A stretch of 64,000 nucleotides of DNA from Thiomicrorhabdus sp. (GTDB lineage: Bacteria; Pseudomonadota; Gammaproteobacteria; Thiomicrospirales; Thiomicrospiraceae): NCBI RefSeq assembly GCF_963662555.1, contig NZ_OY759719.1, positions 372,001 to 436,000 of the forward strand. The letters are read 5' to 3'. The notes under the pieces are model-generated. The model was not told the DNA's origin. It worked only from the letters and a program-made list of their open reading frames with translations, and did not search any database. Shown in pieces: positions 5,316 to 63,861 of this stretch; position 1 is the stretch's first letter, and every line of letters begins with the position of its first letter. The translations under genes were made by a program, and so were the position numbers.

Positions 5316-7379
5316 TTAAGCCGCAATACCACTGTGTCTTAATAACGCATCAATCTCTGGTTCACGGCCTCTAAAGGTTTTAAACAATACCATTGGATCA
5401 ATTGACCCACCTGCCGCTAAAATTGTATTTTTAAAATGCATTCCTGTATCTAAATTTAAAATACCGGTTTCTTCAAACAGACTAAACGCATCTGCAGATA
5501 AAACTTCTGCCCATTTGTAGCTGTAATACCCTGCCGCGTATCCGCCGGCAAAGATATGACTAAAGCTGTGAAGCTGTCTGTTATAACTTGGTGGTTGTAC
5601 TACGGCCACTTCATCGCGAATACGTTGAGAAAGATTCAAAATATCTTCTGGTGAATCTGGGTTGTAAAAAGTGTGCAGTTCAAAGTCAACCAATGCAAAT
5701 TCAATTTGGCGCAACATCATCATGGCCGACTGAAAACCACGACCTTTTTTGAGTGCTTCAAATAAATCATTGGGTAAGCTTTCACCCGTCTCAACATGTG
5801 ATGAGATGAAATCTAATCCTTCTCTCTCCCAACAAAAGTTTTCCATAAACTGAGAAGGAAGTTCAACCGCATCCCAAGGCACGCCAGCAATACCAGAAAC
5901 ATCTAATTGTTCCATTTTGGTAAATAGATGATGAATCCCGTGACCAAATTCATGAAATAACGTAGTTACCTCATCATGAGTTAAGCACGCTTCTTTATCG
6001 CCAATAGGCGGAGTAAAGTTACACACTAAATAGGCCACAGGTGTTTGTAATTTTCCTTTAGGATGTTGCCAACGCGTAATCGCTGAATCCATCCAAGCTC
6101 CACCACGTTTATTTTCACGCGCGTATAAATCTAAATAAAAGTGCCCTACTACTTGATTGGTTTCATCAGTTAATTCAAAAAATCGAACATCTTTATGCCA
6201 AGTCTCAACACCGGTTTTTACGTTAATCTTAATACCAAACAGTTTTTGAGTAATTGAGAATAATCCCTGCAAAACCTTTTCTACTGGAAAATAAGGGCGT
6301 AGTTTTTCTTGGGATAGAGATAAGGTTTTATTTTTTAGTTTTTCAGATGCATAAGTAACATCCCAAGGTTGAAAATCTTCAATACCCAGTTCAGTTTTAG
6401 CAAAAGCTTTTAAGGTTTCTAATTCTTGTTGAGCCTGTGGTTTTGACTTAGCCGCTAAATCTCTTAAAAAGCCTAAAACCTGATCGGTTGACTCTGCCAT
6501 TTTGGTGGCTAATGAGTATTCTGCATAATTTTCGAAACCTAATAAAGTCGCTAATTGATGACGATCTGCACGAATAATCTCAATTAATTCACTGTTATCA
6601 AAAGCCGTATTATCCGCCTGGTCTGAAGCACGAGTAGAAAATGCTTTGTAGACTTCTGCACGTAGCTCTCTATTGTCTGCATGCGTCATAACCGCTAAAT
6701 ACGAAGGAAAATCTAAAGTAACACACCAGCCTGTTAACGACTTTTGCTCTGCTAACTGTTGTAATAATCCCATTGCCGATTCTGGCAGGCCTGCTAAGTC
6801 TTGTTTATCTTCGATATGCTTTGACCAAGCCTGAGTTGACTTAAGGACGTTATTTCCAAACTGGCTGCTATTTTGCGATAAACGTTGTTTAAGATCTTTG
6901 TAAATCGCTTGTTTATCAGCAGGTAAAGCAATACCGCTTAAACGAAAATTACGCAATGCGTTTTCAATGACTTTTTTCTGTGCAAGGTTGTAACTATGGT
7001 ATTCATCACTTTGTGAAATAGCATTAAACTTTTCATAGAGACCTGCATTTTGACCATTCTCAGTGTAATACTGTGTTACCTTCTCTAAACAGTTAGTATA
7101 GGCTTTGTGCCATTCGTCACTGTTCATTACCGCATCTAAATGCCCAACAGGCCCCCACACTTTTTCAAAACGGTTATCAATGCTTTCAAGAGGTTCTACA
7201 AAATTTTGCCAAGTCGGTTCTTGTGTTGAAGAGACTAATTCATCAATAATTTTTTTATTATCTGCTAATAATTGTGAAACGGCTGATTCTATGTGTTCCA
7301 CGTGAAACGCAGAAAATTCAGGAAAATGTGAATCCGATAAAAAAGGATTTTGAGTTACGGCTGTTGAAGATTGTGTCAT
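5316..7379 (-). CDS. prlC: Oligopeptidase A (M3 zinc metallopeptidase)
   Basis: At 687 aa this is full length for OpdA/PrlC. The M3 zinc motif HEFGH lies near residue 475 (TLFHEFGHGIHHLF), with the downstream metal-ligand Glu region intact. The enzyme is cytoplasmic and degrades short peptides and cleaved signal peptides. A parS-like site is embedded in its first codons (7294-7309, encoding FHVEH). In Pseudomonas this gene also lies near the origin. Monocistronic by context; yjbQ starts 146 bp upstream. Confidence 0.96.
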   Translation of the reverse strand: MTQSSTAVTQNPFLSDSHFPEFSAFHVEHIESAVSQLLADNKKIIDELVSSTQEPTWQNFVEPLESIDNRFEKVWGPVGHLDAVMNSDEWHKAYTNCLEKVTQYYTENGQNAGLYEKFNAISQSDEYHSYNLAQKKVIENALRNFRLSGIALPADKQAIYKDLKQRLSQNSSQFGNNVLKSTQAWSKHIEDKQDLAGLPESAMGLLQQLAEQKSLTGWCVTLDFPSYLAVMTHADNRELRAEVYKAFSTRASDQADNTAFDNSELIEIIRADRHQLATLLGFENYAEYSLATKMAESTDQVLGFLRDLAAKSKPQAQQELETLKAFAKTELGIEDFQPWDVTYASEKLKNKTLSLSQEKLRPYFPVEKVLQGLFSITQKLFGIKINVKTGVETWHKDVRFFELTDETNQVVGHFYLDLYARENKRGGAWMDSAITRWQHPKGKLQTPVAYLVCNFTPPIGDKEACLTHDEVTTLFHEFGHGIHHLFTKMEQLDVSGIAGVPWDAVELPSQFMENFCWEREGLDFISSHVETGESLPNDLFEALKKGRGFQSAMMMLRQIEFALVDFELHTFYNPDSPEDILNLSQRIRDEVAVVQPPSYNRQLHSFSHIFAGGYAAGYYSYKWAEVLSADAFSLFEETGILNLDTGMHFKNTILAAGGSIDPMVLFKTFRGREPEIDALLRHSGIAA
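7294..7309. other. parS-like site in prlC
   Basis: TGTTCCACGTGAAACG matches the bacterial parS consensus TGTTNCACGTGAAACA at all but the last base. Confidence 0.7.
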
Positions 7380-7484
7380 AAGGTCTAGGTCTTTTATTTG
7401 GGTTATTTGTATATATTATTAAGTTTAAGTATTGATATAGCGTATAACTCTTTGTATGGCTATTTATTAAAAATTCAACTCAAT

Positions 7485-7500
7485 TTACCAGGCCTGGTAA
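7485..7500. repeat. Iterated palindrome TTACCAGGCCTGGTAA, exact
   Basis: Exact 16-mer, extending to a perfect 22-bp palindrome (7482-7503). It lies in the gap between prlC and yjbQ. Confidence 0.9.
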
Positions 7501-7525
7501 ATTTAAATAGTCATTTGGTTAACGA

Positions 7526-7945
7526 TTACTCACCTTGAATAGTGACTACCAAGGTTCTTGCTCCACCATGATTACGATGCTCGCACAAATAGATGCCCTG
7601 CCAAGTTCCTAAGTTTGGATAACCATTACTAATAGGAATGGTTAAATCAAAACCTAAAAGACTGCCTTTTAAATGTGCAGGCATATCATCTGAACCTTCA
7701 TAAGTATGAGTAAAATAGGATTTATTTTCAGCTACGACGTCATTAAAGAAGCTTTCAAAATCATCACGCACTGAAGGATCAGCATTTTCATTAATAGTAA
7801 GTGATGCTGAGGTATGCTTAATTAGGATATGCATTAATCCTATATTAATATCTCGCAGTTCAGGTAGGTTAGAAAGGATTTCATTGGTAACTAAATGAAA
7901 CCCTCTTGATTGTGCCTTTAAGGTAATTGTTTTTTGAATCCACAC
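7526..7945 (-). CDS. yjbQ: YjbQ family protein (secondary thiamine-phosphate synthase-like)
   Basis: The 139-aa protein is full length for the UPF0047/YjbQ family, with IKHTSASLTINENADPSVRDD and the C-terminal HRNHGGARTLVVTIQGE. Family members have weak thiamine-phosphate synthase activity in vitro, but the true role is unclear. The start is GTG at 7945, with AAGGAA placed 8 nt before it. Confidence 0.92.
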   Translation of the reverse strand: MWIQKTITLKAQSRGFHLVTNEILSNLPELRDINIGLMHILIKHTSASLTINENADPSVRDDFESFFNDVVAENKSYFTHTYEGSDDMPAHLKGSLLGFDLTIPISNGYPNLGTWQGIYLCEHRNHGGARTLVVTIQGE

Positions 7946-8002
7946 AGGCTTTCCTTAAAATAGAAAATATTGAATTTGATACCTTTGCAGGTCTTATCTA
8001 TT

Positions 8003-14299: not shown

Positions 14300-15295
14300 T
14301 TACAAACTTACCAGGCCTGGTAAATTGAATTGAATAAAATTAAAAATATATCCGACTAAGATAAACGATACCGCTAATACTGTTACAAATATCGCTAATG
14401 CTGGCCATTGAATAACTTTTCTTAGAATCAGGATCTCAGGTAAAGATAAAGCAGCAATACTCATCATTAACGCTAAGCTCGTTCCTAAAGGCACTCCTTT
14501 TCCAAGCATCGCCTCAACAATAGGAATTACACCTGTTGCGTTTGAATATAGGGGAATCCCCAATAAAACTGCAGCGGGAACGCTCCACCAATTAGACGCA
14601 TCTGATAAAGTTTCTGATACCCAAGCCTCAGGAACATATCCGTGAAACAAAGCTCCAACCGCTATACCAATTACCACCCAATACCATATACGTTTAACAA
14701 TAACTTTTACTTCATTCCAAGCAAAACTATGTCTTGATTCAAGTGTATTGTGGGTAGACTCAGTAACACCTTGTTGCTTCATTTTAATATCCCAAACATA
14801 GGACTCTACCCAACGTTCCGGTTTAAATCTTTCAATTATTAGCGAACCTATGTACGCAACAGTGATACCTGCAATGACATACATTAGAGCCATTTCCCAA
14901 CCTAATAAAGATATAAGCAAGACAACAGCAACTTCATTAATCATCGGACTAGCGATCAAAAAAGCAAAGGTAATACCTAAAGGAATACGTGCCTCAACAA
15001 ACCCAATAAATAACGGTACTGAAGAACAAGAACAAAAAGGCGTAACTGAACCTAAAGTTATTGCAAGGCTACGCCCTATCCATTTAGGTTTACCAGCCAC
15101 AACATCTCTGATTTTTTCAGTTGATACAAAGGCTCTTAAAAGTCCCATTAAATATATAATTGCAACCAGCAAAAAGAATATCTTGGTACTGTCCATAATA
15201 AAAAACTGTACCGCAGAACCTATTTGAGTATCTGGAGATAGCCCTAGCAATTCAAAGGAAAACCAATCCCCTAAAATTGTAAATATTTCAAACAT
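14300..15295 (-). CDS. UPF0718/DUF318 permease of the ars operon
   Basis: The 331-aa polytopic protein carries the family motif TPFCSCSSVPLF (near residue 95) and a second conserved region, LYSNATGVIPIVEAML. Relatives include ArsP (organoarsenical efflux) and SO_0444-type metal efflux permeases; they often pair with a small thioredoxin-like protein, as here. TAGGAGA precedes the ATG and the MBL gene ends 9 bp upstream. The last codons are formed by the iterated palindrome, so the tail reads NLPGLVSL. Efflux is likely; the substrate is inferred from the operon. Confidence 0.82.
   Translation of the reverse strand: MFEIFTILGDWFSFELLGLSPDTQIGSAVQFFIMDSTKIFFLLVAIIYLMGLLRAFVSTEKIRDVVAGKPKWIGRSLAITLGSVTPFCSCSSVPLFIGFVEARIPLGITFAFLIASPMINEVAVVLLISLLGWEMALMYVIAGITVAYIGSLIIERFKPERWVESYVWDIKMKQQGVTESTHNTLESRHSFAWNEVKVIVKRIWYWVVIGIAVGALFHGYVPEAWVSETLSDASNWWSVPAAVLLGIPLYSNATGVIPIVEAMLGKGVPLGTSLALMMSIAALSLPEILILRKVIQWPALAIFVTVLAVSFILVGYIFNFIQFNLPGLVSL
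14308..14323. repeat. Iterated palindrome, exact, inside the permease 3' end
   Basis: TTACCAGGCCTGGTAA exact, read in frame as the near-terminal residues LPGLV of the permease. Confidence 0.88.
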
Positions 15296-20323: not shown

Positions 20324-20339
20324 TTACCAGGCCTGGTAA
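20324..20339. repeat. Iterated palindrome, exact
   Basis: TTACCAGGCCTGGTAA in the gap between leuA and the flavin reductase gene. Confidence 0.9.
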
Positions 20340-22139: not shown

Positions 22140-22155
22140 TTACCAGGCCTGGTAT
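22140..22155. repeat. Iterated palindrome, one mismatch
   Basis: TTACCAGGCCTGGTAT in the leuA-lrp intergenic region, 49 bp upstream of the leuA start. Confidence 0.85.
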
Positions 22156-26020: not shown

Positions 26021-26515
26021 CTATTTATAATTCGATTGCTTTATGCAGCTTCTCTTTTTAACTAAATGAGTTTGATTCGGATCTATCAAAATACCTTTTA
26101 AGGCCGAACGCCCTATTAATAAAGGTTTAGAAAAATGGCTTCTATTCACTAAATTAACTTCTATTTTTCTTTTTTCTCCTGCAATACATACATTCAATAA
26201 AATAACAGGCCTGCTCTGAAAACCTTCTTTTTTAGTTTTTATCTTCGTTTCTTTATAAAATGGAGTTTCAATTACATAATTTTGGTATGTGGTAAATTTA
26301 ATCCACGCTTGATTGTTTTTTGTATATTGAATAATGTTGGTAGCATGAATAGAAGAATGATCTGCACCACTATCAATTTTTGCAGGCAAAGTAATTTGTT
26401 TATTGTTAGTTAATATTGTTATATCTTCAAGCCAACCAACAACTGTTTGTGCATGAGATAAAGGTGCATAACTTAATAAGATTACATTTAGTAATAAAGT
26501 AGCGAATAATTTCAT
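26021..26515 (-). CDS. Periplasmic retropepsin-like protease (RimB / PF05618 type)
   Basis: From ATG 26515 (AAAGG 8 nt upstream) the protein is 164 aa, with a signal peptide ending SHA-Q. The aspartic-protease-like motif DSGADHSSIHA and the distal NLVNRSHFSKPLLIGRSAL match the family once called ATP-dependent zinc proteases. Such proteins usually neighbour a 7TM-transglutaminase and a RimK-like ligase. The 7TM gene is divergent here and its start codon overlaps this one; no ligase is present in the window. Confidence 0.82.
   Translation of the reverse strand: MKLFATLLLNVILLSYAPLSHAQTVVGWLEDITILTNNKQITLPAKIDSGADHSSIHATNIIQYTKNNQAWIKFTTYQNYVIETPFYKETKIKTKKEGFQSRPVILLNVCIAGEKRKIEVNLVNRSHFSKPLLIGRSALKGILIDPNQTHLVKKRSCIKQSNYK
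26206..26213. repeat. CAGGCCTG octamer in the protease gene
   Basis: Core octamer with shortened flanks (AACAGGCCTGCT), inside coding sequence. Confidence 0.6.
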
Positions 26516-34017: not shown

Positions 34018-34033
34018 TTACCAGGCCTGGTAA
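34018..34033. repeat. Iterated palindrome, exact
   Basis: TTACCAGGCCTGGTAA between the nitroreductase gene and recQ. Confidence 0.9.
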
Positions 34034-36309: not shown

Positions 36310-36325
36310 TTACCAGGCCTGGTAA
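36310..36325. repeat. Iterated palindrome, exact
   Basis: TTACCAGGCCTGGTAA between the small conserved gene and the acetolactate synthase gene. Confidence 0.9.
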
Positions 36326-38138: not shown

Positions 38139-38154
38139 TAACCAGGCCTGGTAA
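38139..38154. repeat. Iterated palindrome, one mismatch
   Basis: TAACCAGGCCTGGTAA, upstream of the acetolactate synthase gene and downstream of dsbA. Confidence 0.85.
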
Positions 38155-40169: not shown

Positions 40170-42248
40170 TTAATTTTCATTTTGTGACTTATTATTATAA
40201 TCTTGAATCTGGGTCACAATAGATTCAAATTCTTTGGTTGTTTCTGGTAAATTTCTATTATCTTTTGCAGCAACAGTTACTTCTGTTCCATCATTGTCAC
40301 CATTTTCATTGGTTTTTTGCTCAATATGAATCCAAGCACGGCGTTGTCTTACATAAAATAAGAAGAACACACCAATAATTAGCATAGCACTACCGAAATA
40401 CACCACATCTTTACCTGGCGATTTAGTAATTTGCAGGCCTGTAGCTTGTATTTCTTTGAAGTTTTTAAGTTCAAAGTACATCGGTGGGCCATAGGCTGAT
40501 AATGAAGAAATGGTATTTAATGCATCTTCAAACCATTTTTTATCAAAATCAGAGATATCATCATTATAGCCTTTTACAACACCTTCTTCTTTTAGCACAT
40601 CCATATAGATGGTTTGTAAGGCAAATGATGTTTGACTGAAATAGAAATCAGAGACTTTTTTCTGATCTTTTTCAGGTACGTTTTTCTTCACAAAGTTAGT
40701 AATGCCGTTAAAGCCTTTGCTTCGGAATAACATGACTAATTGTTGTAATAGTTTTAATTGAGTGTCATAAGCCTTTTGGGTCATGTCTGGAGCTTTTGGA
40801 TAAAGTTTTTCAAATAGCTCTTTAGTGACTAAAGGATTATTAATTTTAGCTAACAGTTTAAAGAAACGTTCTTTAGTACGTTTTGCATCAGCAGGAATAA
40901 ATAAGTATTTAAATGGATCTGCATTACTACTACGAACCCCAGTCATAAAGAACCAACGGCCTTCTTGTTTACTTGGTAAGAAGTAATTTTCATATTCCCA
41001 AGCAGTACCTTGATCGTTACGAACTTTAAAAATAATCGTTGGCCCATTATTGTGCATTTTATGGCCTGTTTCTTTAAATTCTGCTTCCGTTGCTGGAACG
41101 ATATTGTGCATTTTAAAGTCGTCAAACTCGGCTTTAAAGGTTCCAACAGGGGTTTTTAAAGGTTCAATACTTTTAACACTTGTGTTTAGGGTAATCGAGT
41201 TTTCAATAGGTGAAAGTAGAGGGTGGACTTTAATCTCTAATTTAGTTCCGCCATCACCAAATGATGATTGATAAATCGCGTAGTTTTTATAATAAAGAGG
41301 GTGGTTAACCGAAATAGTTTTAACAATAGGTTTATCTAAATCAGGAGCAGTAAGAATTAAATCACTTTCAAATGATTTAGGCATACCTGTATCGTAATAT
41401 TCAATTCTAAAGTTTTTGTTTTTAACAGTAAACGGCAGTTTTTGTACTAGGTAGCCGTTTTCATAAGGTAAAAATAAAACATCCGTTTTTTCACCTTCAG
41501 GAACATTAACCGAGCCTCTAAATGAAAGGTTTTCTGGACCTAACCAAGATTTTTGGTTAACTTTATCTAAACTTACAGATCGGGTTTCTGCTTGCAAACC
41601 ACCTGTTAATTCTCTGTATTTAAGTAGTAAGTTACTGTCTAATAACGCACCTATACAAATAACAATGATTGAAATGTGTGTGAAAAAATAACCTAAACGA
41701 TTCCAACGACCTTTTAAGCCAGCAATGGTGATACTGCCATCATCGCGTTGATGAACTTTAGTTTTATAACCATTGTATTTTAACAATGCTTGAGCATAAC
41801 CTTTTTGTTCTTCAAATTCTAACTTACCTTCAAAAACCGTATTATTTGGTTGATGAATTAAGGCTTTCTTTGAAAGTTTTTCACTATATTGCTTTATGTC
41901 TTTTAAAAAGGTTGGTGTATTACGGGTAACACATACACTTGTTGAGAATAGTAAAAAGAGTAAAACTAAAACGAACCAAGCTGCTCCATAAACGTGAAAC
42001 AGACCTAATTCGTTAAAAACTTGGCTCCAAAATGGGCCAAACTTAATAATGTAGTCTTGTACGGTTTGGTCTTGTTTTAAGACAGTACCAATTACAGAGG
42101 CGATAGAAAGCATAACCAATAAGGTAACGGCTAGGTTCATAGACCCTAAAAAGTTCATAAAAACACTAGGTTTTTTTATAGCAGAAGCTTTTTTAGGCTC
42201 GTTTTTTGGTATTGGTGTATTGTTTTCGGCTTGTGTCATTTTAGTCAT
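40170..42248 (-). CDS. resB: Cytochrome c biogenesis protein ResB (Ccs1)
   Basis: The 692-aa protein has three N-terminal membrane segments (from about residue 30, FLGSMNLAVTLLVMLSIASVIGTVLKQDQ), a large periplasmic domain and a fourth membrane segment near residue 620. This is the ResB/Ccs1 plan. It delivers haem and reductant to apocytochrome c with CcsA. Confidence 0.92.
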   Translation of the reverse strand: MTKMTQAENNTPIPKNEPKKASAIKKPSVFMNFLGSMNLAVTLLVMLSIASVIGTVLKQDQTVQDYIIKFGPFWSQVFNELGLFHVYGAAWFVLVLLFLLFSTSVCVTRNTPTFLKDIKQYSEKLSKKALIHQPNNTVFEGKLEFEEQKGYAQALLKYNGYKTKVHQRDDGSITIAGLKGRWNRLGYFFTHISIIVICIGALLDSNLLLKYRELTGGLQAETRSVSLDKVNQKSWLGPENLSFRGSVNVPEGEKTDVLFLPYENGYLVQKLPFTVKNKNFRIEYYDTGMPKSFESDLILTAPDLDKPIVKTISVNHPLYYKNYAIYQSSFGDGGTKLEIKVHPLLSPIENSITLNTSVKSIEPLKTPVGTFKAEFDDFKMHNIVPATEAEFKETGHKMHNNGPTIIFKVRNDQGTAWEYENYFLPSKQEGRWFFMTGVRSSNADPFKYLFIPADAKRTKERFFKLLAKINNPLVTKELFEKLYPKAPDMTQKAYDTQLKLLQQLVMLFRSKGFNGITNFVKKNVPEKDQKKVSDFYFSQTSFALQTIYMDVLKEEGVVKGYNDDISDFDKKWFEDALNTISSLSAYGPPMYFELKNFKEIQATGLQITKSPGKDVVYFGSAMLIIGVFFLFYVRQRRAWIHIEQKTNENGDNDGTEVTVAAKDNRNLPETTKEFESIVTQIQDYNNKSQNEN
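40434..40441. repeat. CAGGCCTG octamer in resB
   Basis: Core octamer, coding region, without the AT flanks. Confidence 0.55.
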
Positions 42249-46192: not shown

Positions 46193-47299
46193 TCATTTTT
46201 TTAATGGCATTTGGCTTCTTAACTCATTGATATTTTGTATATTATCTTTAATTTCTTGAAGTTGATACATCTGCTCCAATTGGTTTTGTATTATCGTTTT
46301 TTGTTCTATAAGAGTTTCATGAGCCTCTTTGATTTCTAGAGGCTCCAGAGGCTTTTTTATTTGGCCACCTTTGGGCATTTTTGGTATTTCTTTCAAATTG
46401 TTAAATTCACCGTCTTGTTTAACCTTTTGATTTTTTACCATTCGATAATAATCATGCAGATGATAACCAGTTATTTTTCCATTATTTACATCTGCTTTTA
46501 ACAGATATTTTTGATTCATTTTGTGATTTCCAGAGTTCTCAATAAGATTAATATTAAGTCCCGAGAAAACTTTATTCCAATCAGAAAGCTGTGTTTTATT
46601 GGTTTCAATAATAACGTTATTTACTTTATTAGAAAAATGCACATCAGGAATTACTTGATAAATATGCTTGCTTTCTGTGTTGTAGCTTAATCTTGTCGCA
46701 ACCCAACGGTTATCATTATCAGGATATCCATTTACAGCAACCATTTCGCCTGCTTTAACATTAAGGCCATCCGCAATACGGGTTTGCTTGTTAATGATTA
46801 CAGTATGTCCATCAACTACAATTAAATTATCTTCAACTTTTTCTACCAGGCCTGCTAAAGGATAAAATACTTGAATTGTATTTGCCCAAGGTTGTTTATG
46901 ACCGAGCTCAGTCTCAACCACCACTTGTTGTCCAAGTTGTAGGGTCTCTTTAGTTGAGAGGTTTGATGTTACCTTAACGTTTTTGCTGTATTCAACTTCA
47001 ACACCATTAACCCAAATACTGCCAAATTCGGTAATAGTACCAATGATACCAGTACCTCCAAATCCAGAGTTAGATGCTACTTGACCAGTTCCACCAAAAC
47101 CTGAGGTTTTGGCGACTTGAGTGGTTTGATCGGCTGTTTTTCCAGTACCACCAAATCCAGAGTTAGAGGCTGTTTTAACCTCAGTTGGTGTTAACTGACA
47201 AGCACTTAATAATAAGGCCGCTGTTATAACAACAAGTGCTTTTTTTAAGTTAAAAAAACGGTATGACAAATAATTGCAAAGGGCAGTAAAGATGAACAT
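46193..47299 (-). CDS. DUF5666-like lipoprotein with GFGGTG repeats
   Basis: From ATG 47299 (AGGA upstream; a longer start at 47335 would overlap the previous gene) the protein is 368 aa. The lipobox is LLSACQ. Three SGFGGTG repeats follow, then a domain with GTITEFGSIWVNGVEV and repeated small-barrel units (LVEKVEDNLIVVDGHTVIINKQTRI). The C-terminus is Lys/Glu/Gln-rich. Function unknown. It pairs with a DUF6502 gene, as in other proteobacteria. Confidence 0.75.
   Translation of the reverse strand: MFIFTALCNYLSYRFFNLKKALVVITAALLLSACQLTPTEVKTASNSGFGGTGKTADQTTQVAKTSGFGGTGQVASNSGFGGTGIIGTITEFGSIWVNGVEVEYSKNVKVTSNLSTKETLQLGQQVVVETELGHKQPWANTIQVFYPLAGLVEKVEDNLIVVDGHTVIINKQTRIADGLNVKAGEMVAVNGYPDNDNRWVATRLSYNTESKHIYQVIPDVHFSNKVNNVIIETNKTQLSDWNKVFSGLNINLIENSGNHKMNQKYLLKADVNNGKITGYHLHDYYRMVKNQKVKQDGEFNNLKEIPKMPKGGQIKKPLEPLEIKEAHETLIEQKTIIQNQLEQMYQLQEIKDNIQNINELRSQMPLKK
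46847..46854. repeat. CAGGCCTG octamer in the DUF5666 gene
   Basis: CTACCAGGCCTGCTAA, coding, read LAGLV on the minus strand. Confidence 0.65.
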
Positions 47300-47303
47300 G
47301 AAT

Positions 47304-49665: not shown

Positions 49666-52503
49666 TTAGTGTGCTTCATCCCAGTTATTACCTTCGCCAA
49701 TTTCAACAATAAGTGGTACTTTAAGTTCTAATGCCGATTCCATTAGGCGTTTTATTTCAGGTTTAACCGCTTCTAATTGAGATTCAGCCACTTCAAACAC
49801 CAATTCATCGTGCACTTGCATAATCATTTGAATATCAAAATCACAGGTTTGTAGCCAGCTTTCAATTTGTATCATTGCTGTTTTAATGATGTCAGCAGCG
49901 GTACCTTGCATAGGTGCGTTAATCGCTGTGCGTTCAGCGTATTGTCTTAGTTGACCATTACGAGCATTAATGTCAGGCAAGTACAATCTACGTCCTAAGA
50001 GAGTCTCTACATATCCTGTGTCTTTAGCTTGATCTTTGGTGTTTTGCATATAGTGTAATACGCCAGGGTAGCGTGAGAAATACAGGTCGATGTACTCTTG
50101 AGCTAAATTACGACCGACGTTTAATTGTTTAGCTAAACCAAATGCAGACATTCCGTAAATCAAACCAAAATTAACTGCTTTGGCACTGCGACGTTGTTCT
50201 GTGGTGACTTCTTCTAAAGGGACACCAAAAATTTCTGCAGCGGTGGCTTGGTGAATGTCTTTACCTTGTGCAAATGCATCTAAAAGGCCTTGGTCACCGG
50301 ATAAATGAGCCATGATTCGTAATTCAATTTGCGAATAATCAGCTGCTAGCATTTTATAACCAGGCTTGGTAACAAAGGCTTGGCGAATTCGACGACCTTC
50401 TGCAGAACGGATTGGAATATTTTGCAGGTTGGGTTCAGTTGAAGATAAACGTCCAGTAGACGCCACCGCCTGCATGTACGAGGTGTGAACTCGACCGGTA
50501 TCCTTATCAATCTGTTTAGGTAAAGAATCGGTATAGGTTGATTTTAGTTTGGCTAAACTACGGTATTCTAAAATAAGAATCGGAATCTCATGGCCTTGTT
50601 CCGCTAATTCGGCCAATACTGGCTCTGCAGTAGAGGGTTGGCCCTTTGGTGTTTTTTTAATAACTGGTAGCTGTAGGTTCTCAAATAAAATCACTTGTAG
50701 TTGCTTTGAAGAGTTGAGGTTAAAGTTCTCTCCAGCGATTAAATGTGCCTTTTGTTCGAGTTCTGTTAGTTTTTTGCTTAGTTCATCACTTTGAATGGCA
50801 AGCATCTCTGTATCAAGTAATACACCGTTACGTTCCATATGTGCCAAAACAGGCATTAATGGCATCTCTATGTCGGTAAATACCTTTTTAAGGGTTGGTT
50901 CTGCTTCTAATTGTTGCCAAAGTGTTTGATGTAGTTGCAAAGTAATATCGGCATCTTCTGCAGCATAATGCGCTGCAGTTTCAATTTCAATTTGGTTAAA
51001 GGTCAGTTGTTTTTTGCCTTTACCTGCAATTTCTTCAAAGTGTGTGGTGCGGTGATTTAGATATTTAAGGGCTAAATCATCCATATTATGGCGAGTAGCT
51101 ACACTGTTTAAGCTATAAGATTCGAGCATGGTATCAAACTGCATACCTTTAAGTGAAATACCGTGATTTTGAAACACATGCCAATCATATTTTAAATTTT
51201 GACCACATTTAGCAACATTTGGGTTTTCTAATATAGGTTTTAAACGATTTAATACCATTTCAATATCAAGTTGCTCGGGTGCACCTTCATAGTCATGAGT
51301 TAAAGGAATATAACAGGCCTGGTTACCAGGGTTTTTTGGATCTTTAACCGCTAAACATAACCCAACAATTTTTGCTTGTAAGGTGTTCAATGAGGTGGTT
51401 TCGGTATCAATGGCAAATAGTTCAGAAGCTTCAATGCGGTTTACCCAGTTATCAAATGCTTCTTGGGTAAAGACAGTTTCGTAGTTAGAAGCTACAGTAG
51501 TTGCTTGAACTGCTGGTGAATTTTCATCGTTAGAATCTGAGTTTGTATCATTGTTAGTATTTTTCTTTTGAATGGTTTGGCTATGTGCTTTTGCACCTGT
51601 TGATTTTGAGAAAGGCACGTGACCACTCATTACTTGATTTAGCCAATTCTTTAGGTCATATTCCGTGAACAATTCTTGTAAACGTTGCATATCAGGTGGT
51701 TGGCGTTGAATATCATCTAGGCTAACAGGTAAGTCGCAATCTACTTTAATAGTGGTTAACTCTTTAGAAAGAGCTAGTTGATCTAGGTTATTACGAAGGT
51801 TTTCACCAATTTTGCCACCAATCATAGGGGCGTTTTCAACCAAATTGTGGATGTTGCCAAAAGAATTAAGCCATTTAACAGCTGTTTTAGGGCCGCACTT
51901 AGGAATTCCTGGGATATTGTCGGCACTATCTCCCACTAAGGCCAAATAATCAATGATTTGATCTGGACGAACGCCAAACTTTTCAACGACGGTTTCTGGT
52001 GTTGATAAACTGTCGTTCATAGTGTTAATTAATGTCACATGTTCATTTACAAGTTGTGCCAAATCTTTATCACCCGTTGAGATGAGAGTGTCGTGTTTGG
52101 CTTGGGTTGCTTGATGAGCAAAGGTTCCCATTACATCATCCGCTTCTACGCCATCAATAACCAATAATGGCAAACCTAATGCTTTAACAATTTCATGAAT
52201 TGGCTCTATTTGAGTGCGGAGTTCATCGGGCATTGGCGGGCGATGGGCTTTATATTCGCTGTACATTTCATGACGAAAAGTTTTGCCTTTGGCATCAAAA
52301 ATGACCGCCATTTTCTCTGGTTGATATTGCTCAAGCAATTTACCGAGCATATTAATTACCCCAAAAATCGCGCCCGTTGCCTGACCTTTGCCATTTGTTA
52401 GAGGCGGCATAGCATGAAAGGCTCTAAATAGATAAGAGGAACCATCTACTAAAATAAAAGGGCTATCGGGATTAAAACTGATTTGCGAATTTGAATCGGT
52501 CAT
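49666..52503 (-). CDS. polA: DNA polymerase I
   Basis: The 945-aa protein has all three domains: 5'-3' nuclease (residues 1-290, with ISTGDKDLAQLV and GDSADNIPGIPKCGPKTA), 3'-5' exonuclease (about 345-530, FAIDTETTSLN) and polymerase (about 560-945, ADYSQIELRIMAHLSGD, RRSAKAVNFGLIYGMSAFGLA, QVHDELVFEV). Proofreading Asp/Glu residues are present. It processes Okazaki fragments and repairs DNA. Confidence 0.98.
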   Translation of the reverse strand: MTDSNSQISFNPDSPFILVDGSSYLFRAFHAMPPLTNGKGQATGAIFGVINMLGKLLEQYQPEKMAVIFDAKGKTFRHEMYSEYKAHRPPMPDELRTQIEPIHEIVKALGLPLLVIDGVEADDVMGTFAHQATQAKHDTLISTGDKDLAQLVNEHVTLINTMNDSLSTPETVVEKFGVRPDQIIDYLALVGDSADNIPGIPKCGPKTAVKWLNSFGNIHNLVENAPMIGGKIGENLRNNLDQLALSKELTTIKVDCDLPVSLDDIQRQPPDMQRLQELFTEYDLKNWLNQVMSGHVPFSKSTGAKAHSQTIQKKNTNNDTNSDSNDENSPAVQATTVASNYETVFTQEAFDNWVNRIEASELFAIDTETTSLNTLQAKIVGLCLAVKDPKNPGNQACYIPLTHDYEGAPEQLDIEMVLNRLKPILENPNVAKCGQNLKYDWHVFQNHGISLKGMQFDTMLESYSLNSVATRHNMDDLALKYLNHRTTHFEEIAGKGKKQLTFNQIEIETAAHYAAEDADITLQLHQTLWQQLEAEPTLKKVFTDIEMPLMPVLAHMERNGVLLDTEMLAIQSDELSKKLTELEQKAHLIAGENFNLNSSKQLQVILFENLQLPVIKKTPKGQPSTAEPVLAELAEQGHEIPILILEYRSLAKLKSTYTDSLPKQIDKDTGRVHTSYMQAVASTGRLSSTEPNLQNIPIRSAEGRRIRQAFVTKPGYKMLAADYSQIELRIMAHLSGDQGLLDAFAQGKDIHQATAAEIFGVPLEEVTTEQRRSAKAVNFGLIYGMSAFGLAKQLNVGRNLAQEYIDLYFSRYPGVLHYMQNTKDQAKDTGYVETLLGRRLYLPDINARNGQLRQYAERTAINAPMQGTAADIIKTAMIQIESWLQTCDFDIQMIMQVHDELVFEVAESQLEAVKPEIKRLMESALELKVPLIVEIGEGNNWDEAH
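51314..51321. repeat. CAGGCCTG octamer in polA
   Basis: AACAGGCCTGGTTA, coding. A further degenerate copy, TAACCAGGCTTGGTAA, lies near 50359. Confidence 0.6.
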
Positions 52504-53705: not shown

Positions 53706-53721
53706 TTACCAGGCCTGGTAA
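53706..53721. repeat. Iterated palindrome, exact, longest copy
   Basis: TTACCAGGCCTGGTAA extended to a perfect 26-bp palindrome (53701-53726), between thrB and tsaC. Confidence 0.92.
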
Positions 53722-53728: not shown

Positions 53729-53908
53729 TTATGTTTTTTTGTTTAGTTCTGATTCTACTCTAAGATCAATAACCATGATGTTATGGTTAGGAGCCTCAAT
53801 TTCATTTACTTGAATCAGCATTTTGATGCTGGCGTATAAAAACGTTGTTTTAAATTCATCACAAATGAGGTCTTTGTAAATGGTTTTTACTAGGCCTGGT
53901 AAGTTTGA
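53729..53908 (-). pseudogene. Open frame without start codon, possible gene remnant
   Basis: The minus strand is open for about 59 codons up to TAA at 53731-53729, with protein-like content (DLICDEFKTTFLYASIKMLIQ then NHNIMVIDLRVESELNKKT). There is no ATG/GTG/TTG before the middle and a stop bounds the 5' side. It may be a decayed gene or chance. Otherwise the gap 53654-54033 holds only two palindrome copies. Confidence 0.25.
53887..53902. repeat. Iterated palindrome, one mismatch
   Basis: TTACTAGGCCTGGTAA, 181 bp after the 26-bp copy in the same gap. Confidence 0.85.
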
Positions 53909-54655: not shown

Positions 54656-55750
54656 CTAACGGGCAATAATAGTTTGGTTTTTACCCTGTTTTATTGCTTG
54701 TTGTAGAGCTTGATTAGCCTGTTTAAAATAGTCGTCAAAATCAAAATATTGGCTATTTTCTGTTTTTAACAGGCCTGCTGAAATGGTTAATTTTTGATAT
54801 TCACTGTTTTCATTTTTAATATTCAAATCGGCAATTAGTTGGTGGACTTTCTTTAATTTTTGAATAACGGCTTTAGGCTGTTTGATTAAGATAGTAAGAG
54901 CAAATTCATTACCACCAGTACGAAATAAAATACCCTCTAGAGAGCCCACCAGTTGTTGTAATGCTTCGGCGACTTTTTGAATGGCCGCATCTCCTTGTTG
55001 ATGACCATATTGTTCATTGTAAGCTCTAAAGTCATCTAATTTAATTAATCCAAAAATTACGCTGGGTTGTTGCTGTTGTATTTGTACCGACAGAAGAGGT
55101 GAGACCAACGGTAAATATTGGCGATTATAAAGCTGGGTTAAAGGATCTTTGGTTGTTGGAAAAATTTGATTTGCTTTATCTGAATTTTTGTCACTAGATT
55201 TATTTTTTAAATAGACGTTTTCGTAAGTAAAATCAATCATGAAAATAATATATAAAATCGCAAAATAGGCAAAGCTAAAACGTAATAGTCCAGTGATATC
55301 CCACTGACTATTTAGCCAATTGCTTAAGCCAAGATAAAGCTCGGCAAAGACGATAATAAAGAACAGTAAACTAAGAAATGTGCCCCAAAGTCTTCCACGA
55401 CTAATAATCGCTACGATTGGAAAAATAATCGTCCAAACTAGACCAAAGCCATAATTTTGGTTGATATAGTTAAAAGCGAGTAAAAACACGGCATATGCCA
55501 CTAGACCGATGGTTACGGGAGTTATGATATCTTGAGATTTTTTGAAGTAAATGTGTACTACCAATAGCATGCCTGCTGATGTTGCAGAGATGATGGTTAC
55601 GTAGATGTTTTTTAAAATAAAGGCATTATAAAGGCCAAAAACTCCCATTATGATATAACCCAATGGAATAATGGTCGTCAGTATCATCTCTTGGCGATAC
55701 TCTTCAAGAGAAACTGGATTCTTAAATGTTGGAAAATACTTTTTAATCAA
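54656..55750 (-). CDS. Membrane GGDEF-domain protein with GGNEF site
   Basis: The 364-aa protein has six membrane helices (about residues 22-175) and a C-terminal GGDEF domain (from about 202, DPLTQLYNRQYL). The signature is GGNEF (279-283): the metal-binding third residue is Asn281 (codon 54910-54908), not Asp or Glu. The other metal Asp (FGLIKLDDF) is kept. Cyclase activity is therefore doubtful; it may bind GTP or cyclic-di-GMP. Convergent with tsaC. Confidence 0.88.
   Translation of the reverse strand: MIKKYFPTFKNPVSLEEYRQEMILTTIIPLGYIIMGVFGLYNAFILKNIYVTIISATSAGMLLVVHIYFKKSQDIITPVTIGLVAYAVFLLAFNYINQNYGFGLVWTIIFPIVAIISRGRLWGTFLSLLFFIIVFAELYLGLSNWLNSQWDITGLLRFSFAYFAILYIIFMIDFTYENVYLKNKSSDKNSDKANQIFPTTKDPLTQLYNRQYLPLVSPLLSVQIQQQQPSVIFGLIKLDDFRAYNEQYGHQQGDAAIQKVAEALQQLVGSLEGILFRTGGNEFALTILIKQPKAVIQKLKKVHQLIADLNIKNENSEYQKLTISAGLLKTENSQYFDFDDYFKQANQALQQAIKQGKNQTIIAR
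54770..54777. repeat. CAGGCCTG octamer in the GGDEF gene
   Basis: TAACAGGCCTGCTG, coding. Confidence 0.55.
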
Positions 55751-55805: not shown

Positions 55806-56642
55806 TTAGCGTATATAGCTTTTTTGCCTTATAGCTTGCCTATATAACGGCTCTACTTTTTTAGCGTAGGCGTTTAAATCTTTGATTCGACTTGCGTGAG
55901 AAGGGTGAGTACTGAGTATTTCAGGTGGTCGCCCCCCATCAGACTGTTTTTCCATTTTTTGCCAAACACTGACCGCAGCATAAGGGTTATAGCCTGCTCT
56001 TGCTGCAAGCTCTACGCCCATTCTATCTGCTTCAACCTCATGGGTACGGCTGTTGGGTAATGTAACGGTAACTTGCAAAGCCATTGCCGCTGCATCCAGT
56101 GTTGGGCCACGGGCTCCAGTAAAAATGCTTAATGCACTTAGTCCAACTTGGGTTAACGCTTGTTCTGAGGCTCTCTCTCTACCATGTTCTCGCAAAGCAT
56201 GAGCAATTTCGTGACCCATAATAGCCGCAATTTCAGCATCGGTTAATTTAAGTTTATTGATAATACCTGTATAAAACGCAATTTTGCCTCCAGGCATACA
56301 CCAAGCATTTAATTGATCAGACTCTAAAACATTAACTTCCCACTTCCACTTAGGGGCATCTTCTCTAAAAATGGCGGTTTGTGGGATAATTCTGTTAGCA
56401 ATAGATCGCACACGTTTAAGCATGGCACTATTGGTATTGAGTTTTTTAGCTGTTTTGGCTTCTTTTAAAACAGAGTTGTAGGCAAGCTGGGCTCCTTTTT
56501 GCATCTCTGCCGGAGAAACCAAAAGGAGTTGTTCTCGTTTTATACCCACTGTGCCTTGTTTAGTACTGGTCGTTGTACAACCTACCAGGCCTGCTAAAAA
56601 TAAAACAATGATTAGATGTTTTGAATAAGAGAGTATTTGCAT
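55806..56642 (-). CDS. M48 family metallopeptidase lipoprotein (LoiP/YcaL-like)
   Basis: From ATG 56642 the protein is 278 aa. The lipobox is LVGC (LAGLVGCTTT). The zinc site HEIAHALREH lies near residue 137, with a downstream Glu in EVEADRMGVELAARAGYNP. It is a periplasmic, membrane-anchored quality-control protease. An octamer copy (56586-56593) encodes the lipobox LAGLV. Likely in one unit with the DUF4197 gene upstream. Confidence 0.9.
   Translation of the reverse strand: MQILSYSKHLIIVLFLAGLVGCTTTSTKQGTVGIKREQLLLVSPAEMQKGAQLAYNSVLKEAKTAKKLNTNSAMLKRVRSIANRIIPQTAIFREDAPKWKWEVNVLESDQLNAWCMPGGKIAFYTGIINKLKLTDAEIAAIMGHEIAHALREHGRERASEQALTQVGLSALSIFTGARGPTLDAAAMALQVTVTLPNSRTHEVEADRMGVELAARAGYNPYAAVSVWQKMEKQSDGGRPPEILSTHPSHASRIKDLNAYAKKVEPLYRQAIRQKSYIR
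56586..56593. repeat. CAGGCCTG octamer at the M48 lipobox
   Basis: CTACCAGGCCTGCTAA, coding, read LAGLV. Confidence 0.65.
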
Positions 56643-56681
56643 AACCAAATTCCGTAATTACTACCTCGACTTAATGGTTCA

Positions 56682-57473
56682 TTACTGGCCAAAAACTTTT
56701 TTCAATAATTCGGTTGATTGTTTAACTGGGTCCTTACGAATAGCGGCTTCTTCTTGTGCCATGTAATAAAACATGCCACTCATGCCTTTATCTAATACAT
56801 GGTCAAGCAAGTCAGCTTTTACATTTGGAACAAAAGGTAAGTTTTTGTATTTGTTAATGGCTTTGTCATAAGCTTGAATGGCTCCAACCTCATTTAAAGA
56901 GTTTTCTATAATGGGTGTCATTTTGGCTTTAAGCTCTGGCTCTGTTTTAGATTTTAAATACTGTGTGGCAGAATCTTTTGGGCCATCGTAAATCTTTTTA
57001 ACGTCTTCAAACTTCATATCTTGAATGGCTTTAATAAATAAAGCTTTTGCCTGTGGAGTAGCCACTTCAGCAGCACGATTAAGTTTAGTTTCAAGGTCAT
57101 CCATATATTTACCCATACCAAATCTATCAAGCGTTGATTGAACCGTTTTTAAAGAATCTGGAAGCGGAATATGTACTTTAGGATCACTATTAAAGCCATT
57201 TAAAGTACCTAGCTTATCAACTACTACCTCAGAACTTTTTGATAAAGCTTGTTTAAAAGCCTTTTGTATTTCTTCACTAGATAAATTACTGGGGATGGCA
57301 GGATTGGTTACCGTATTATTTGTGCTTGAGCTCGATTTATCTTGTAGACTTTTTAATAAATCAGCACCCTGATCTAACCAGCTGGCTTGAACTGGGTTTA
57401 CCAGGCCTGTTAAAACAAAACATAACGGTAGAGCAGCTAAAGTGTTTAGGGAGAAGGTTCTGTTTTTGTTCAT
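56682..57473 (-). CDS. DUF4197 periplasmic protein
   Basis: The 263-aa precursor has a signal peptide (to VQA-S) and the DUF4197 features IQKAFKQALSKSSEVVVDKLG, VHIPLPDSLKTVQSTLDRFGMG and a C-terminal GMSGMFYYMAQEEAAIRKDP. Function unknown. GAGG precedes the ATG. A one-mismatch palindrome (57398-57413) encodes part of the signal peptide (LTGLVN). Confidence 0.88.
   Translation of the reverse strand: MNKNRTFSLNTLAALPLCFVLTGLVNPVQASWLDQGADLLKSLQDKSSSSTNNTVTNPAIPSNLSSEEIQKAFKQALSKSSEVVVDKLGTLNGFNSDPKVHIPLPDSLKTVQSTLDRFGMGKYMDDLETKLNRAAEVATPQAKALFIKAIQDMKFEDVKKIYDGPKDSATQYLKSKTEPELKAKMTPIIENSLNEVGAIQAYDKAINKYKNLPFVPNVKADLLDHVLDKGMSGMFYYMAQEEAAIRKDPVKQSTELLKKVFGQ
57398..57413. repeat. Iterated palindrome, one mismatch, in a signal peptide
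   Basis: TTACCAGGCCTGTTAA inside the DUF4197 gene. Confidence 0.8.
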
Positions 57474-59754: not shown

Positions 59755-59800
59755 TTTATAGAATTTTTATTGGTTTAAGTTTTATTTTGTGGAGAGAAAA

Positions 59801-60528: not shown

Positions 60529-60558
60529 AAAGCACCCAAATGGGTGCTTTTTTGTGGG
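60529..60558. terminator. Bidirectional terminator
   Basis: AAAGCACCCA pairs with TGGGTGCTTT, A-rich left and T run right. It would also serve the small minus-strand ORFs that end at 60574. Confidence 0.8.
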
Positions 60559-60573
60559 TGCTTTTTTATTTAA

Positions 60574-60729
60574 CTACGGTTTGTAATTGTTTACTAACAT
60601 TACTACCTGTCCATGGGTGGAGATTCCATGCCATTCATTTTTTTGGTTAACAAAAGTTCCCACCACATTGTTTTCACCTGATGTAATATCTACCAGGCCT
60701 GTTAAATAACCTGCATTAGGACATCGCAT
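60574..60729 (-). CDS. Possible small ORF (51 aa), second part of a split gene
   Basis: The frame from ATG 60729 reads MRCPNAGYLTGLVDITSGEN and continues in protein-like fashion to a stop at 60574. No ribosome site is visible; its ATG lies before the stop of the small ORF upstream. The two together could be one gene of about 85 codons broken by a frameshift. A palindrome-like copy (60690-60705) is read LTGLVD. Confidence 0.35.
   Translation of the reverse strand: MRCPNAGYLTGLVDITSGENNVVGTFVNQKNEWHGISTHGQVVMLVNNYKP
60690..60705. repeat. Iterated palindrome, two mismatches
   Basis: CTACCAGGCCTGTTAA, octamer at 60694-60701. Confidence 0.7.
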
Positions 60730-60823: not shown

Positions 60824-60863
60824 ATAATCAGTCAATTACTTTCTAAATGAACTTGGAATTCTT

Positions 60864-62744: not shown

Positions 62745-62828
62745 GCAAAGTTTTTAGATTAACAAGTTGCTCAAATTCTCCATAGTGACAGCACAAAATA
62801 AATACCCTGGAACTAATCTAATAGACAT

Positions 62829-62858
62829 AAAAAAACCCGCTAAAAGAGCGGGTTTTTA
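62829..62858 (-). terminator. Terminator of phosphoribulokinase gene
   Basis: AAACCCGCT pairs with AGCGGGTTT (short A-rich loop), flanked by A run and T run, so it works in both directions. Confidence 0.85.
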
Positions 62859-62882
62859 ATGCCATATGCAAAAGCTTAATAA

Positions 62883-63821
62883 TTAAGCATTTGCCATTGC
62901 AGCACGTTTTTTAGCAATTAGATTTTGAATGATTGGTGTCATCATTAAATCCATTGCTTGAACCATATGTGAACCGCTACAAACTAACGTTTCTGCATTC
63001 TGTAAGAAAGCACCTTCAATTTGGTCTTTAACGGCTTCTAGATCAACATCTTGGTGACGAACGTGACAGATGATTAAAGAATCTTCTGGTGCTGGTCCCA
63101 TTGGTGCATCTGGAGACATGGTTGAGAATGGATCAGACGTATCAATTAACGGTACACGGTGGAAATTGATGTGAGTACGGTGGAACTGAGGAACGATTGT
63201 CTCAATATAGTCAGGCATACGCTCAAGAATGGTGTCACGTACCTGTTGAACTGAATATGGACGTTCTGCTGTATCACGGTAGATTTTTTGCATCCACTCG
63301 ATGTTGATAGATGGTGCTACACCAATCCCTAAATCAACATACTGTGCTACGTTGTGCATACCTTCTTCAGGACCGTGATCCATACGTTTAACCATTCCGT
63401 GAAGACCTTCATAGAAAAGTACATCCGTACCTTCAGGAATTGGCTCCCAAGGAGTAAACTCACCAGATTGGTAGTTAGTACCACCTAAACGTGCATTATG
63501 TTCAGCTGCTTCTTCATCGCTGTGAATATAGTAACGACGCTTACCTGTAGCCGTTTCTTTATACTCTTTAAAAAGAGCTTCTAGTTCGGCAAATTCGTTA
63601 GCAGCTTCTGCAAAGTGAGTTAATGTTGGACCACCGTTTGCTTTTGATTCAGCGACTTTTTCTTTCATTTCAGCACGGCTGTACTTGTGATAGCTGTCAC
63701 CTTCAACAATAGCAACGTTTAGGTTTTCGCGATCAAAAATCTTTTCTACAGCACGTTTAACAAAAGAAGTACCTGCTCCAGATGAACCAGTTACGGTAAC
63801 GATAGGGTGTTGTACTGACAT
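62883..63821 (-). CDS. prk: Phosphoribulokinase
   Basis: The 312-aa enzyme is the proteobacterial type, with P-loop VTGSSGAGTS, EGDSYHKYSR, YIHSDEEAAEHN and FYEGLHGMV. It makes ribulose-1,5-bisphosphate, the CO2 acceptor of the Calvin cycle, so the organism is an autotroph. AGGAGA precedes the ATG. An exact palindrome copy and a strong inverted repeat lie upstream. Confidence 0.97.
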   Translation of the reverse strand: MSVQHPIVTVTGSSGAGTSFVKRAVEKIFDRENLNVAIVEGDSYHKYSRAEMKEKVAESKANGGPTLTHFAEAANEFAELEALFKEYKETATGKRRYYIHSDEEAAEHNARLGGTNYQSGEFTPWEPIPEGTDVLFYEGLHGMVKRMDHGPEEGMHNVAQYVDLGIGVAPSINIEWMQKIYRDTAERPYSVQQVRDTILERMPDYIETIVPQFHRTHINFHRVPLIDTSDPFSTMSPDAPMGPAPEDSLIICHVRHQDVDLEAVKDQIEGAFLQNAETLVCSGSHMVQAMDLMMTPIIQNLIAKKRAAMANA

Positions 63822-63845
63822 GAACTGTCTCCTAATTTAATAAAA

Positions 63846-63861
63846 TTACCAGGCCTGGTAA
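63846..63861. repeat. Iterated palindrome, exact
   Basis: TTACCAGGCCTGGTAA extended to a perfect 20-bp palindrome (63844-63863), 25 bp before the prk start codon. Confidence 0.92.

What the first reader, a model, noticed from the sequence alone, without database searches (positions are those of the whole stretch)
6786..63861. Highly iterated palindrome CAGGCCTG / TTACCAGGCCTGGTAA across the window
By eye I count 20 copies of CAGGCCTG (first bases 6786, 7489, 14312, 20328, 22144, 26206, 34022, 35667, 36314, 38143, 39562, 40434, 46847, 51314, 53710, 54770, 56586, 57402, 60694, 63850). At roughly 35% GC fewer than one is expected. Twelve sit in a 16-mer TTACCAGGCCTGGTAA with at most one mismatch. 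Eight of those twelve are intergenic, one straddles a gene end, and others are tolerated in coding sequence, often read LAGLV or LTGLV. Perfect palindromes without a loop are not terminators. Known analogues are HIP1 of cyanobacteria, DNA-uptake sequences, and nucleoid-occlusion sites (SlmA, Noc). Here the reader is unknown.
Basis: partly seen in the sequence, partly recalled or inferred. Interest (0 to 1): 0.78.

Follow-up and report, generated by a model that had tools for sequence, protein, structure and literature searches.

The report
Genome-wide palindrome tag with species dialects
A family of sulfur-oxidising bacteria carries hundreds to about a thousand copies per genome of one short DNA word, and some lineages have a related word instead, which looks most like a self-recognition tag for taking up DNA from kin, although the protein that reads it is unknown.

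Summary
All 20 CAGGCCTG copies are where stated; the genome has 904 (reversed-string control 1) and 222 exact 16-mers. In the Thiomicrorhabdus/Hydrogenovibrio/Thiomicrospira family 32 of 62 genomes hold 236-1173 copies and 30 hold 0-74. Six of those 30 have another iterated word at 361-1025 copies: D2 tttACCGGCCGGTaaa (1 genome), D3 AAAcTcAACAGGCCGGGTa (2), D4 AAAATCTgCCAGGYTGGG (3). D3 and D4 are not palindromes. Sites arise by point substitution, often synonymous, at orthologous codons. There is no terminus gap and no strong strand polarity. Three methyltransferase families have no match in this genome, unlike cyanobacterial HIPs. Best reading: a DNA-uptake-sequence-like tag with lineage dialects, which would be a third such family. 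Uptake itself is untested; HIP-like or chromosome-binding functions remain possible.

The parts
6786..6793 (.). CAGGCCTG octamer, inside ORF 5316-7379 (peptidase M3)
7485..7500 (.). exact TTACCAGGCCTGGTAA, intergenic
14308..14323 (.). exact 16-mer, 3' end of ORF 14300-15295 (-)
20324..20339 (.). exact 16-mer, intergenic
22140..22155 (.). 16-mer with 1 mismatch, intergenic
26206..26213 (.). octamer, inside ORF 26021-26566
34018..34033 (.). exact 16-mer, intergenic
35663..35678 (.). 16-mer with 1 mismatch, inside ORF 34129-35919 (RecQ-type helicase)
36310..36325 (.). exact 16-mer, intergenic
38139..38154 (.). 16-mer with 1 mismatch, intergenic
39562..39569 (.). octamer, inside ORF 38959-40137
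40434..40441 (.). octamer, inside ORF 40170-42248 (ResB)
46843..46858 (.). 16-mer with 2 mismatches, octamer intact, inside ORF 46193-47335
50357..50372 (.). near-copy TAACCAGGCTTGGTAA in polA; six of the 19 relatives aligned have an intact octamer at this codon position
51310..51325 (.). octamer with weak flanks, inside polA ORF 49666-52503 (-)
53706..53721 (.). exact 16-mer, intergenic
53887..53902 (.). near-copy TTACTAGGCCTGGTAA, octamer broken at its first base, intergenic
54766..54781 (.). octamer with weak flanks, inside ORF 54656-55750
56582..56597 (.). 16-mer with 2 mismatches, octamer intact, inside ORF 55806-56648
57398..57413 (.). 16-mer with 1 mismatch, octamer intact, inside ORF 56682-57473
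60690..60705 (.). 16-mer with 2 mismatches, octamer intact, between ORFs
63846..63861 (.). exact 16-mer, after ORF 62883-63821

Best explanation
A genome-wide self-tag that works like the DNA uptake sequences of Neisseriaceae (DUS) and Pasteurellaceae (USS). Shown: the word is iterated hundreds to about 1,000 times per genome, scattered along the chromosome at close to random spacing in the stretches sampled, gained and lost by point substitution, with lineage-specific dialects, two of them asymmetric. Inferred: during natural transformation a surface or periplasmic protein (I would guess a type IV minor pilin) binds the word on extracellular DNA, so DNA carrying it is taken up preferentially through the pilus/ComEC route. 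Fragments that carry a copy replace homologous DNA more often, so copies accumulate where they do little harm (gene ends, permissive codons).
For: Copy number: D1 236-1173 in 32 of 62 genomes; D2 1025 in G007 (control 1), at most 15 in the other 59 genomes searched; by CAGGYYGGG, D3 736 in G003 and 446 in G017, D4 361, 403 and 444 in G038, G039 and G044 (controls 12-51). Dialects share CAGG or GGCC letters and have A/T-rich flanks. A polA tree of 21 genomes puts D3 (one clade, 100/100) with D1 genomes, D2 beside no-motif genomes (85/85) and D4 beside a D1 genome (90/87). Gain by substitution at orthologous codons, e.g. GCC GGC CGG in VAFAGRSNA only in the D2 genome. In G000 intergenic copies favour convergent (4.8-fold) and tandem (3.2-fold) over divergent (1.2-fold) gaps. 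Asymmetric dialects lie on both strands. ComEC in 55 of 60 genomes; pilin leader motifs in 15 of 15 examined. Dialects, conserved inner cores and A/T-rich USS flanks are traits of DUS/USS according to PMC12616744 (introduction read).
Against: No reader found: ComP_DUS 0 of 60 over cut-off, though none of the 14 control genomes rang either, so its reach is unproven. The minor-pilin cluster of motif genomes is also in no-motif G009, G010 and G011. ComEC is in 20 of the 23 no-motif genomes searched, and missing from one D1 (G016) and one D3 genome (G017), both incomplete. No report of competence in this family among the papers listed (most subscription papers not held). The commonest dialect is a perfect palindrome, unlike DUS or USS. 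One-mismatch octamers as a set are near Markov expectation (108 against 97 over 12 variants), although flank-selected sites show 18 one-off cores against 0-2 in resampled sequence. G052 shows no intergenic preference, and G001, G007 and G003 show about 2.5-fold excess in divergent gaps too, on 2-4 sites each. G003 keeps D3 although its ComEC frame is short.
Confidence: 0.5

Rival explanations
1. A HIP1-like highly iterated palindrome: a DNA methyltransferase marks the word or its inner AGGCCT, and methylation-directed mismatch repair or a methylation-dependent function creates and keeps copies.
For: Octameric GC-rich palindrome, top 8-mer of the genome sample. Elhai 2015 (PMC4390886: abstract, parts of two sections and passages read) reports alternate palindromes in place of HIP1 in some cyanobacteria, much as D2 stands in for D1 here. 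Seven further-degree one-off sites do lean to outer bases (6 of 18 flank-selected one-offs at base 1).
Against: C5 (PF00145), N4/N6 (PF01555) and D12 (PF02086) methyltransferases have no match in G000, G007 (D2) or G038 (D4); 10 of the 31 D1 genomes searched have none of the three. The other 21 do have at least one. AGGCCT outside the octamer is 128 against about 145 expected. D3 and D4 are asymmetric. Type I and type IIG methyltransferase families were not searched.
Confidence: 0.2
2. Binding sites for a chromosome-organising or division protein (SlmA-, Noc- or NAP-like) spread over the chromosome.
For: Palindromes suit a dimeric protein; sites are scattered over the whole chromosome (20-kb counts: mean 6.7, variance 7.9).
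Against: No gap near the GC-skew-inferred terminus (10, 4, 7 and 4 copies in the 20-kb stretches at 1.485, 1.62, 1.755 and 1.89 Mb); asymmetric dialects D3 and D4; 24 of 62 genomes have no motif that I know of, and 9 of those 24 were sampled in part without finding one.
Confidence: 0.15
3. A recombination or segregation signal of the Chi or KOPS kind, read directionally by RecBCD-like or FtsK-like enzymes.
For: Hundreds to a thousand copies, lineage-specific words. G038 and G039 lean to one strand (205 of 361 and 220 of 403).
Against: D1 and D2 are palindromes and have no direction. D3 and D4 are near-balanced overall (345/391, 221/225, 156/205, 183/220, 218/226) and mixed within single 20-kb stretches. 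Replichore-resolved polarity was not measured.
Confidence: 0.07
4. Dispersed terminator or regulatory hairpins, or a mobile repeat element.
For: In G000 intergenic copies are 3- to 5-fold enriched in tandem and convergent gaps, and the RNA could fold with a GGCC loop.
Against: 94 of the 155 classified copies in G000 are genic, and 68 of 71 in G052; T-runs of 4 or more follow 13 and precede 9 of 39 tandem-gap sites; base preference fades about 8 nt from the core and sites appear by substitution in aligned genes.
Confidence: 0.05

Closest known systems
DUS of Neisseriaceae / USS of Pasteurellaceae
   Same: Short word at hundreds to thousands of copies per genome, lineage dialects with related cores, A/T-rich flanks as in USS (PMC12616744 introduction; here).
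   Different: Commonest dialects D1 and D2 are perfect palindromes; no ComP_DUS-type pilin over cut-off; uptake preference not demonstrated; that paper knows such discrimination only in the two other families.
HIP1 and alternate HIPs of cyanobacteria
   Same: GC-rich octameric palindrome far above expectation; a different word in place of the usual one in some genomes (PMC4390886).
   Different: No match to three methyltransferase families in 10 of 31 D1 genomes; two dialects asymmetric; no surplus of the inner hexamer outside the octamer. HIPs are reported at about 500-2500 per Mb; here about 335 per Mb (904 in 2.70 Mb).
SlmA (SBS) and Noc (NBS) sites (recalled)
   Same: Chromosome-wide palindromes.
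   Different: Known sites are fewer and absent near the terminus (recalled, no call); here there is no terminus gap.

Membership tests
DNA uptake sequence (DUS/USS) | Short motif at hundreds to thousands of copies per genome | tested here: met
DNA uptake sequence (DUS/USS) | Dialects that follow subclades and share an inner core | tested here: inconclusive
   Four dialects; D3 is one clade in the polA tree, D2 is in one genome, and of the three D4 genomes only one is in the tree. Shared letters CAGG (D1, D3, D4) and GGCC (D1, D2, D3) make a loose core.
DNA uptake sequence (DUS/USS) | Sequence-specific DNA uptake or transformation | not testable with these tools
   needs an uptake assay
DNA uptake sequence (DUS/USS) | Dedicated receptor pilin (ComP in Neisseriaceae; ComN/PpdA predicted in Pasteurellaceae) | tested here: not met
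   PF16732 over cut-off in 0 of 60 genomes, one weak match (its 14 control genomes also gave none). ComN/PpdA not searched. Other pilins are present but none tracks the motif in the 15 genomes examined.
DNA uptake sequence (DUS/USS) | Competence machinery present | tested here: met
   ComEC domain in 55 of 60 genomes, G000 included; DprA, ComEA and PilQ not tested
HIP (highly iterated palindrome) | Palindromic octamer grossly over-represented | tested here: met
   D1; D2; not so for D3 and D4
HIP (highly iterated palindrome) | Methyltransferase specific for the word or its centre | tested here: not met
   PF00145, PF01555 and PF02086 without match in G000, G007 and G038; type I/IIG families not searched
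HIP (highly iterated palindrome) | One-off variants biased to the outer bases of the octamer | tested here: inconclusive
   outer-base variants at Markov expectation without flank selection; 6 of 18 flank-selected one-offs are at base 1
SlmA/Noc nucleoid-occlusion sites | Depletion near the terminus | tested here: not met
   (terminus placed by GC-skew sign change between 1.64 and 1.755 Mb)
Chi/KOPS | Strand polarity along replichores | tested here: inconclusive
   overall and local strand counts mixed; replichores not resolved

The most novel reading that the evidence does not exclude
A third, independently evolved DNA-uptake-sequence system, in the Thiomicrospira/Thiomicrorhabdus/Hydrogenovibrio family, whose widespread form is a perfect palindrome (read identically in either orientation) and which appears to have switched twice to an asymmetric word: a natural series in which a receptor's specificity and hundreds of genomic tags changed together.
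Probability: 0.42. Interest if true: 0.88.

Novelty: new variant of a known kind. Interest (0 to 1): 0.74.

Why it matters
[quoted passage not shown] A third family, in sulfur oxidisers, with at least four dialects including palindromic and asymmetric ones and genomes without any known word, would give an independent replicate for how such tags start, spread and change. If instead it is HIP-like, it shows such palindromes outside cyanobacteria and, in several genomes, without three common methyltransferase families.

Tried and rejected
Methyltransferase link: three families searched, no enzyme common to the motif genomes. ComEC as a presence/absence correlate: near-universal. ComP_DUS pilin: nothing over cut-off. 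Minor-pilin clusters in 15 genomes: the set beside a pilA-like gene in G000 has only distant matches (27-34% identity) in no-motif G005, G030 and G031 but better ones in no-motif G009, G010 and G011, so it does not single out a receptor. Terminator reading: weak. Terminus avoidance: none. Even spacing: pairs closer than 600 bp are 23 against 29.9 random in G000 and 12 against 16.5 in G001, but 27 against 23.0 in G052, 16 against 11.7 in G007 and 10 against 6.7 in G003; not convincing. Other enriched words in no-motif genomes: G031's is one local array with a 60-bp period and G009's a dispersed repeat with conserved flanks, so I did not count them as dialects. Viral carriers: 4 stretches in IMG/VR with an exact 16-mer, one (L123) with 4 octamers in 8.3 kb and three with 1 each; not followed. 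Literature: among the papers listed, none whose title or abstract start links this family to an uptake sequence or iterated palindrome (listings capped at 10-20, one search listed 20 of 759); the octamer string gave 848 papers, 15 listed, none of these on bacterial genome motifs by title. The XCL-2 genome paper was not held.

Not done: order-level distribution, type I/IIG methyltransferases, other competence genes; 15 of the 24 no-motif genomes were not sampled for other words. Of the 9 sampled, G048 was read for 26 kb and G050 for 10 kb only. The full D3 word was not read in G017, only counted.
Full report
OBSERVATION. The 20 octamers are exact and at the stated places, against 0.28 expected from dinucleotide shuffles. 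The 16-mer occurs 12 times with at most one mismatch, but one of these (53887) lacks an intact octamer. The window is bases 372,001-436,000 of a single-contig genome of 2,696,250 bases. That genome holds 904 octamers (reversed-string control 1) and 222 exact 16-mers (control 0). I sampled 20 stretches of 20 kb plus the window (464 kb): 154 octamers against 3.5 expected from dinucleotides, the top 8-mer of all. Twenty-kilobase counts run 3-12 with mean 6.7 and variance 7.9, close to a random scatter.

ANATOMY. In those 464 kb the octamer counts 308 on both strands against 8.4 for a second-order Markov model, while its 12 distinct one-mismatch forms sum to 108 against 97. AGGCCT outside the octamer is not in surplus (436 in all, 308 of them in octamers, 154 expected overall). 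The wider consensus is aatTTACCAGGCCTGGTAAatt, fading within about 8 bases on either side. Among sites whose eight flank bases match at six or more places, 107 have a perfect core and 18 a one-off core, against 0 and 2 one-offs in two Markov resamples, so decayed sites do exist.

PLACE. With a simple ORF caller, 89 of 154 octamers lie in ORFs that make up 83% of the sequence. With a shorter ORF limit and one more stretch, G000 shows 94 genic, 39 tandem-gap, 18 convergent-gap, 4 divergent-gap and 8 unplaced sites out of 163: 3.2-fold enriched in tandem, 4.8-fold in convergent and 1.2-fold in divergent gaps. G001 (61 sites) is enriched in tandem (3.5), convergent (4.6) and, on 4 sites, divergent gaps (2.5). 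In G052, of another genus, 68 of 71 placed sites are genic with no gap preference. GC skew changes sign between the window and 0.47 Mb and between 1.64 and 1.755 Mb; octamers show no gap at the presumed terminus.

THE FAMILY. Of 62 genomes of the family, 32 hold 236-1173 octamers and 30 hold 0-74. The exact 16-mer varies more: 9 of 32 genomes of the genus have it, from 3 to 222 copies, so the core is shared and the flanks are local.

DIALECTS. Word counts in stretches of low-count genomes showed other words. G007 has tttACCGGCCGGTaaa: ACCGGCCGGT occurs 1025 times there (control 1) and at most 15 times in the other 59 genomes of that search. G003 has AAAcTcAACAGGCCGGGTa, and G038, G039 and G044 have AAAATCTgCCAGGYTGGG. 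The pattern CAGGYYGGG, summed over strands, gives 736 (G003), 446 (G017), 361, 403 and 444, against controls of 12-51. That pattern is not perfectly clean: elsewhere it reaches 217 in G037 (control 143), 181 in G040 (108), 178 in G050 (165) and 134 in G054 (36). G017 is called D3 by count and by its place beside G003 in the tree; its full word was not read. Searches covered 60 of the 62 genomes (G022 and G024 not drawn). The remaining 24 genomes have no word that I know of; nine of these were sampled in part (G005, G009, G010, G011, G023, G030, G031, and short pieces of G048 and G050) without a comparable one (two candidate words proved to be a local array and a dispersed repeat). G009 and G011, near G007 in the tree, have 15 copies each of the D2 word against controls of 3 and 2.

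HISTORY. A polA protein tree of 21 genomes (rooted at the midpoint for drawing only) has D1 both in distant genera and in Thiomicrorhabdus, D3 as one clade (100/100) grouped with two D1 genomes, D2 next to a no-motif clade (85/85), D4 next to a D1 genome (90/87), and no-motif genomes in three places. D1 as the older state is the simplest reading but is inference. Codon alignments of genes around polA show gains and losses by substitution: the D2 word appears only in G007 in VAFAGRSNA, ASTGRLSST and ELAGRSFQA, peptides nearly identical in the genomes aligned; one polA position holds an intact octamer in six genomes (G012, G008, G013, G006, G001, G052) and a broken one in G000.

READER. No match to C5, N4/N6 or D12 methyltransferase models in G000. 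Counting any match at E<=0.001, 10 of the 31 D1 genomes in those searches (G000, G002, G004, G006, G027, G029, G037, G058, G060, G061) have none of the three and 21 have at least one; G007 and G038 also have none, while G003 has a D12 match, G039 and G017 an N4/N6 match and G044 two C5 matches. ComEC is found in 55 of 60, ComP_DUS over cut-off in 0 of 60 (no control genome rang), pilin leader motifs in 15 of 15 genomes examined. No pilin cluster separated motif from no-motif genomes among those 15.

INTERPRETATION. What has to be explained is a long word, one dialect per lineage, hundreds of tags replaced together, asymmetric as well as symmetric forms, placement in many permissive sites, no terminus effect and no strong strand bias. 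Uptake sequences explain these with known biology: biased uptake plus recombination is a drive that spreads whichever word the receptor prefers. A HIP-like origin explains palindromes and replacement but not the missing methyltransferases or the asymmetric dialects. A chromosome-binding protein remains possible. Every step from tag to uptake is inference; receptor, competence and preference are unshown. I therefore file it as working like an uptake-sequence system, not as a proven member.

LITERATURE. Read: abstract, section 2.3, part 1 of section 3.4 and passages of PMC4390886; abstract and introduction of PMC12616744; passages of PMC6501319 and PMC3757466, neither of which reports such a word in the passages seen. 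PMC3630211, PMC1626085 and PMC1939737 were seen only as search listings with the start of the abstract.

Noticed in passing
L304 (G003:C1:85709-89269): In G003 the ComEC reading frame is short (594 aa) and ends about 100 bases from the end of a D12-type methyltransferase ORF on the other strand, so ComEC looks cut short there although the D3 tags persist.
   Followed up: partly
L161 (G038:C1:1-20000): A very dense repeat, with single 8-mers at 27-81 copies in 20 kb; possibly a large repeat array.
   Followed up: no
L206:9900-15300 (G031): A local array of about 97 copies of a conserved repeat with a 60-bp period and differing sequence between copies, CRISPR-like by eye.
   Followed up: no
L211-L215 (G039): Several 10-12-mers recur in 16 separate 400-base bins of 100 kb, in at least two stretches, besides the D4 word.
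   Followed up: no
L219-L222 (G009): A dispersed repeat around AAGTCCCCATTGA with conserved flanks, five copies in 80 kb.
   Followed up: no
L146-L147 (G001): CCCGCGGG and TCAATCCA-type words at 37-41 copies in 40 kb, probably a local array.
   Followed up: no
G010 (whole genome): A no-motif genome fairly close to the window's D1 group by polA (84% identity) still has 32 octamers against 8 for the control string, possibly remnants.
   Followed up: no
G034: An 81%-complete genome with 9 stretches matching the C5 methyltransferase model, some of them fragments on one contig, more than its relatives.
   Followed up: no
L263:3925-8740 (G000): A set of long pilin-like genes near a pilA-like gene is only about 47-58% identical to its counterpart in G012, whose polA is 94% identical: fast-evolving pilins.
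   Followed up: partly
window 64000 and just beyond: GC skew changes sign between the window and 0.47 Mb of G000, so the replication origin may lie close to the window's right end.
   Followed up: no
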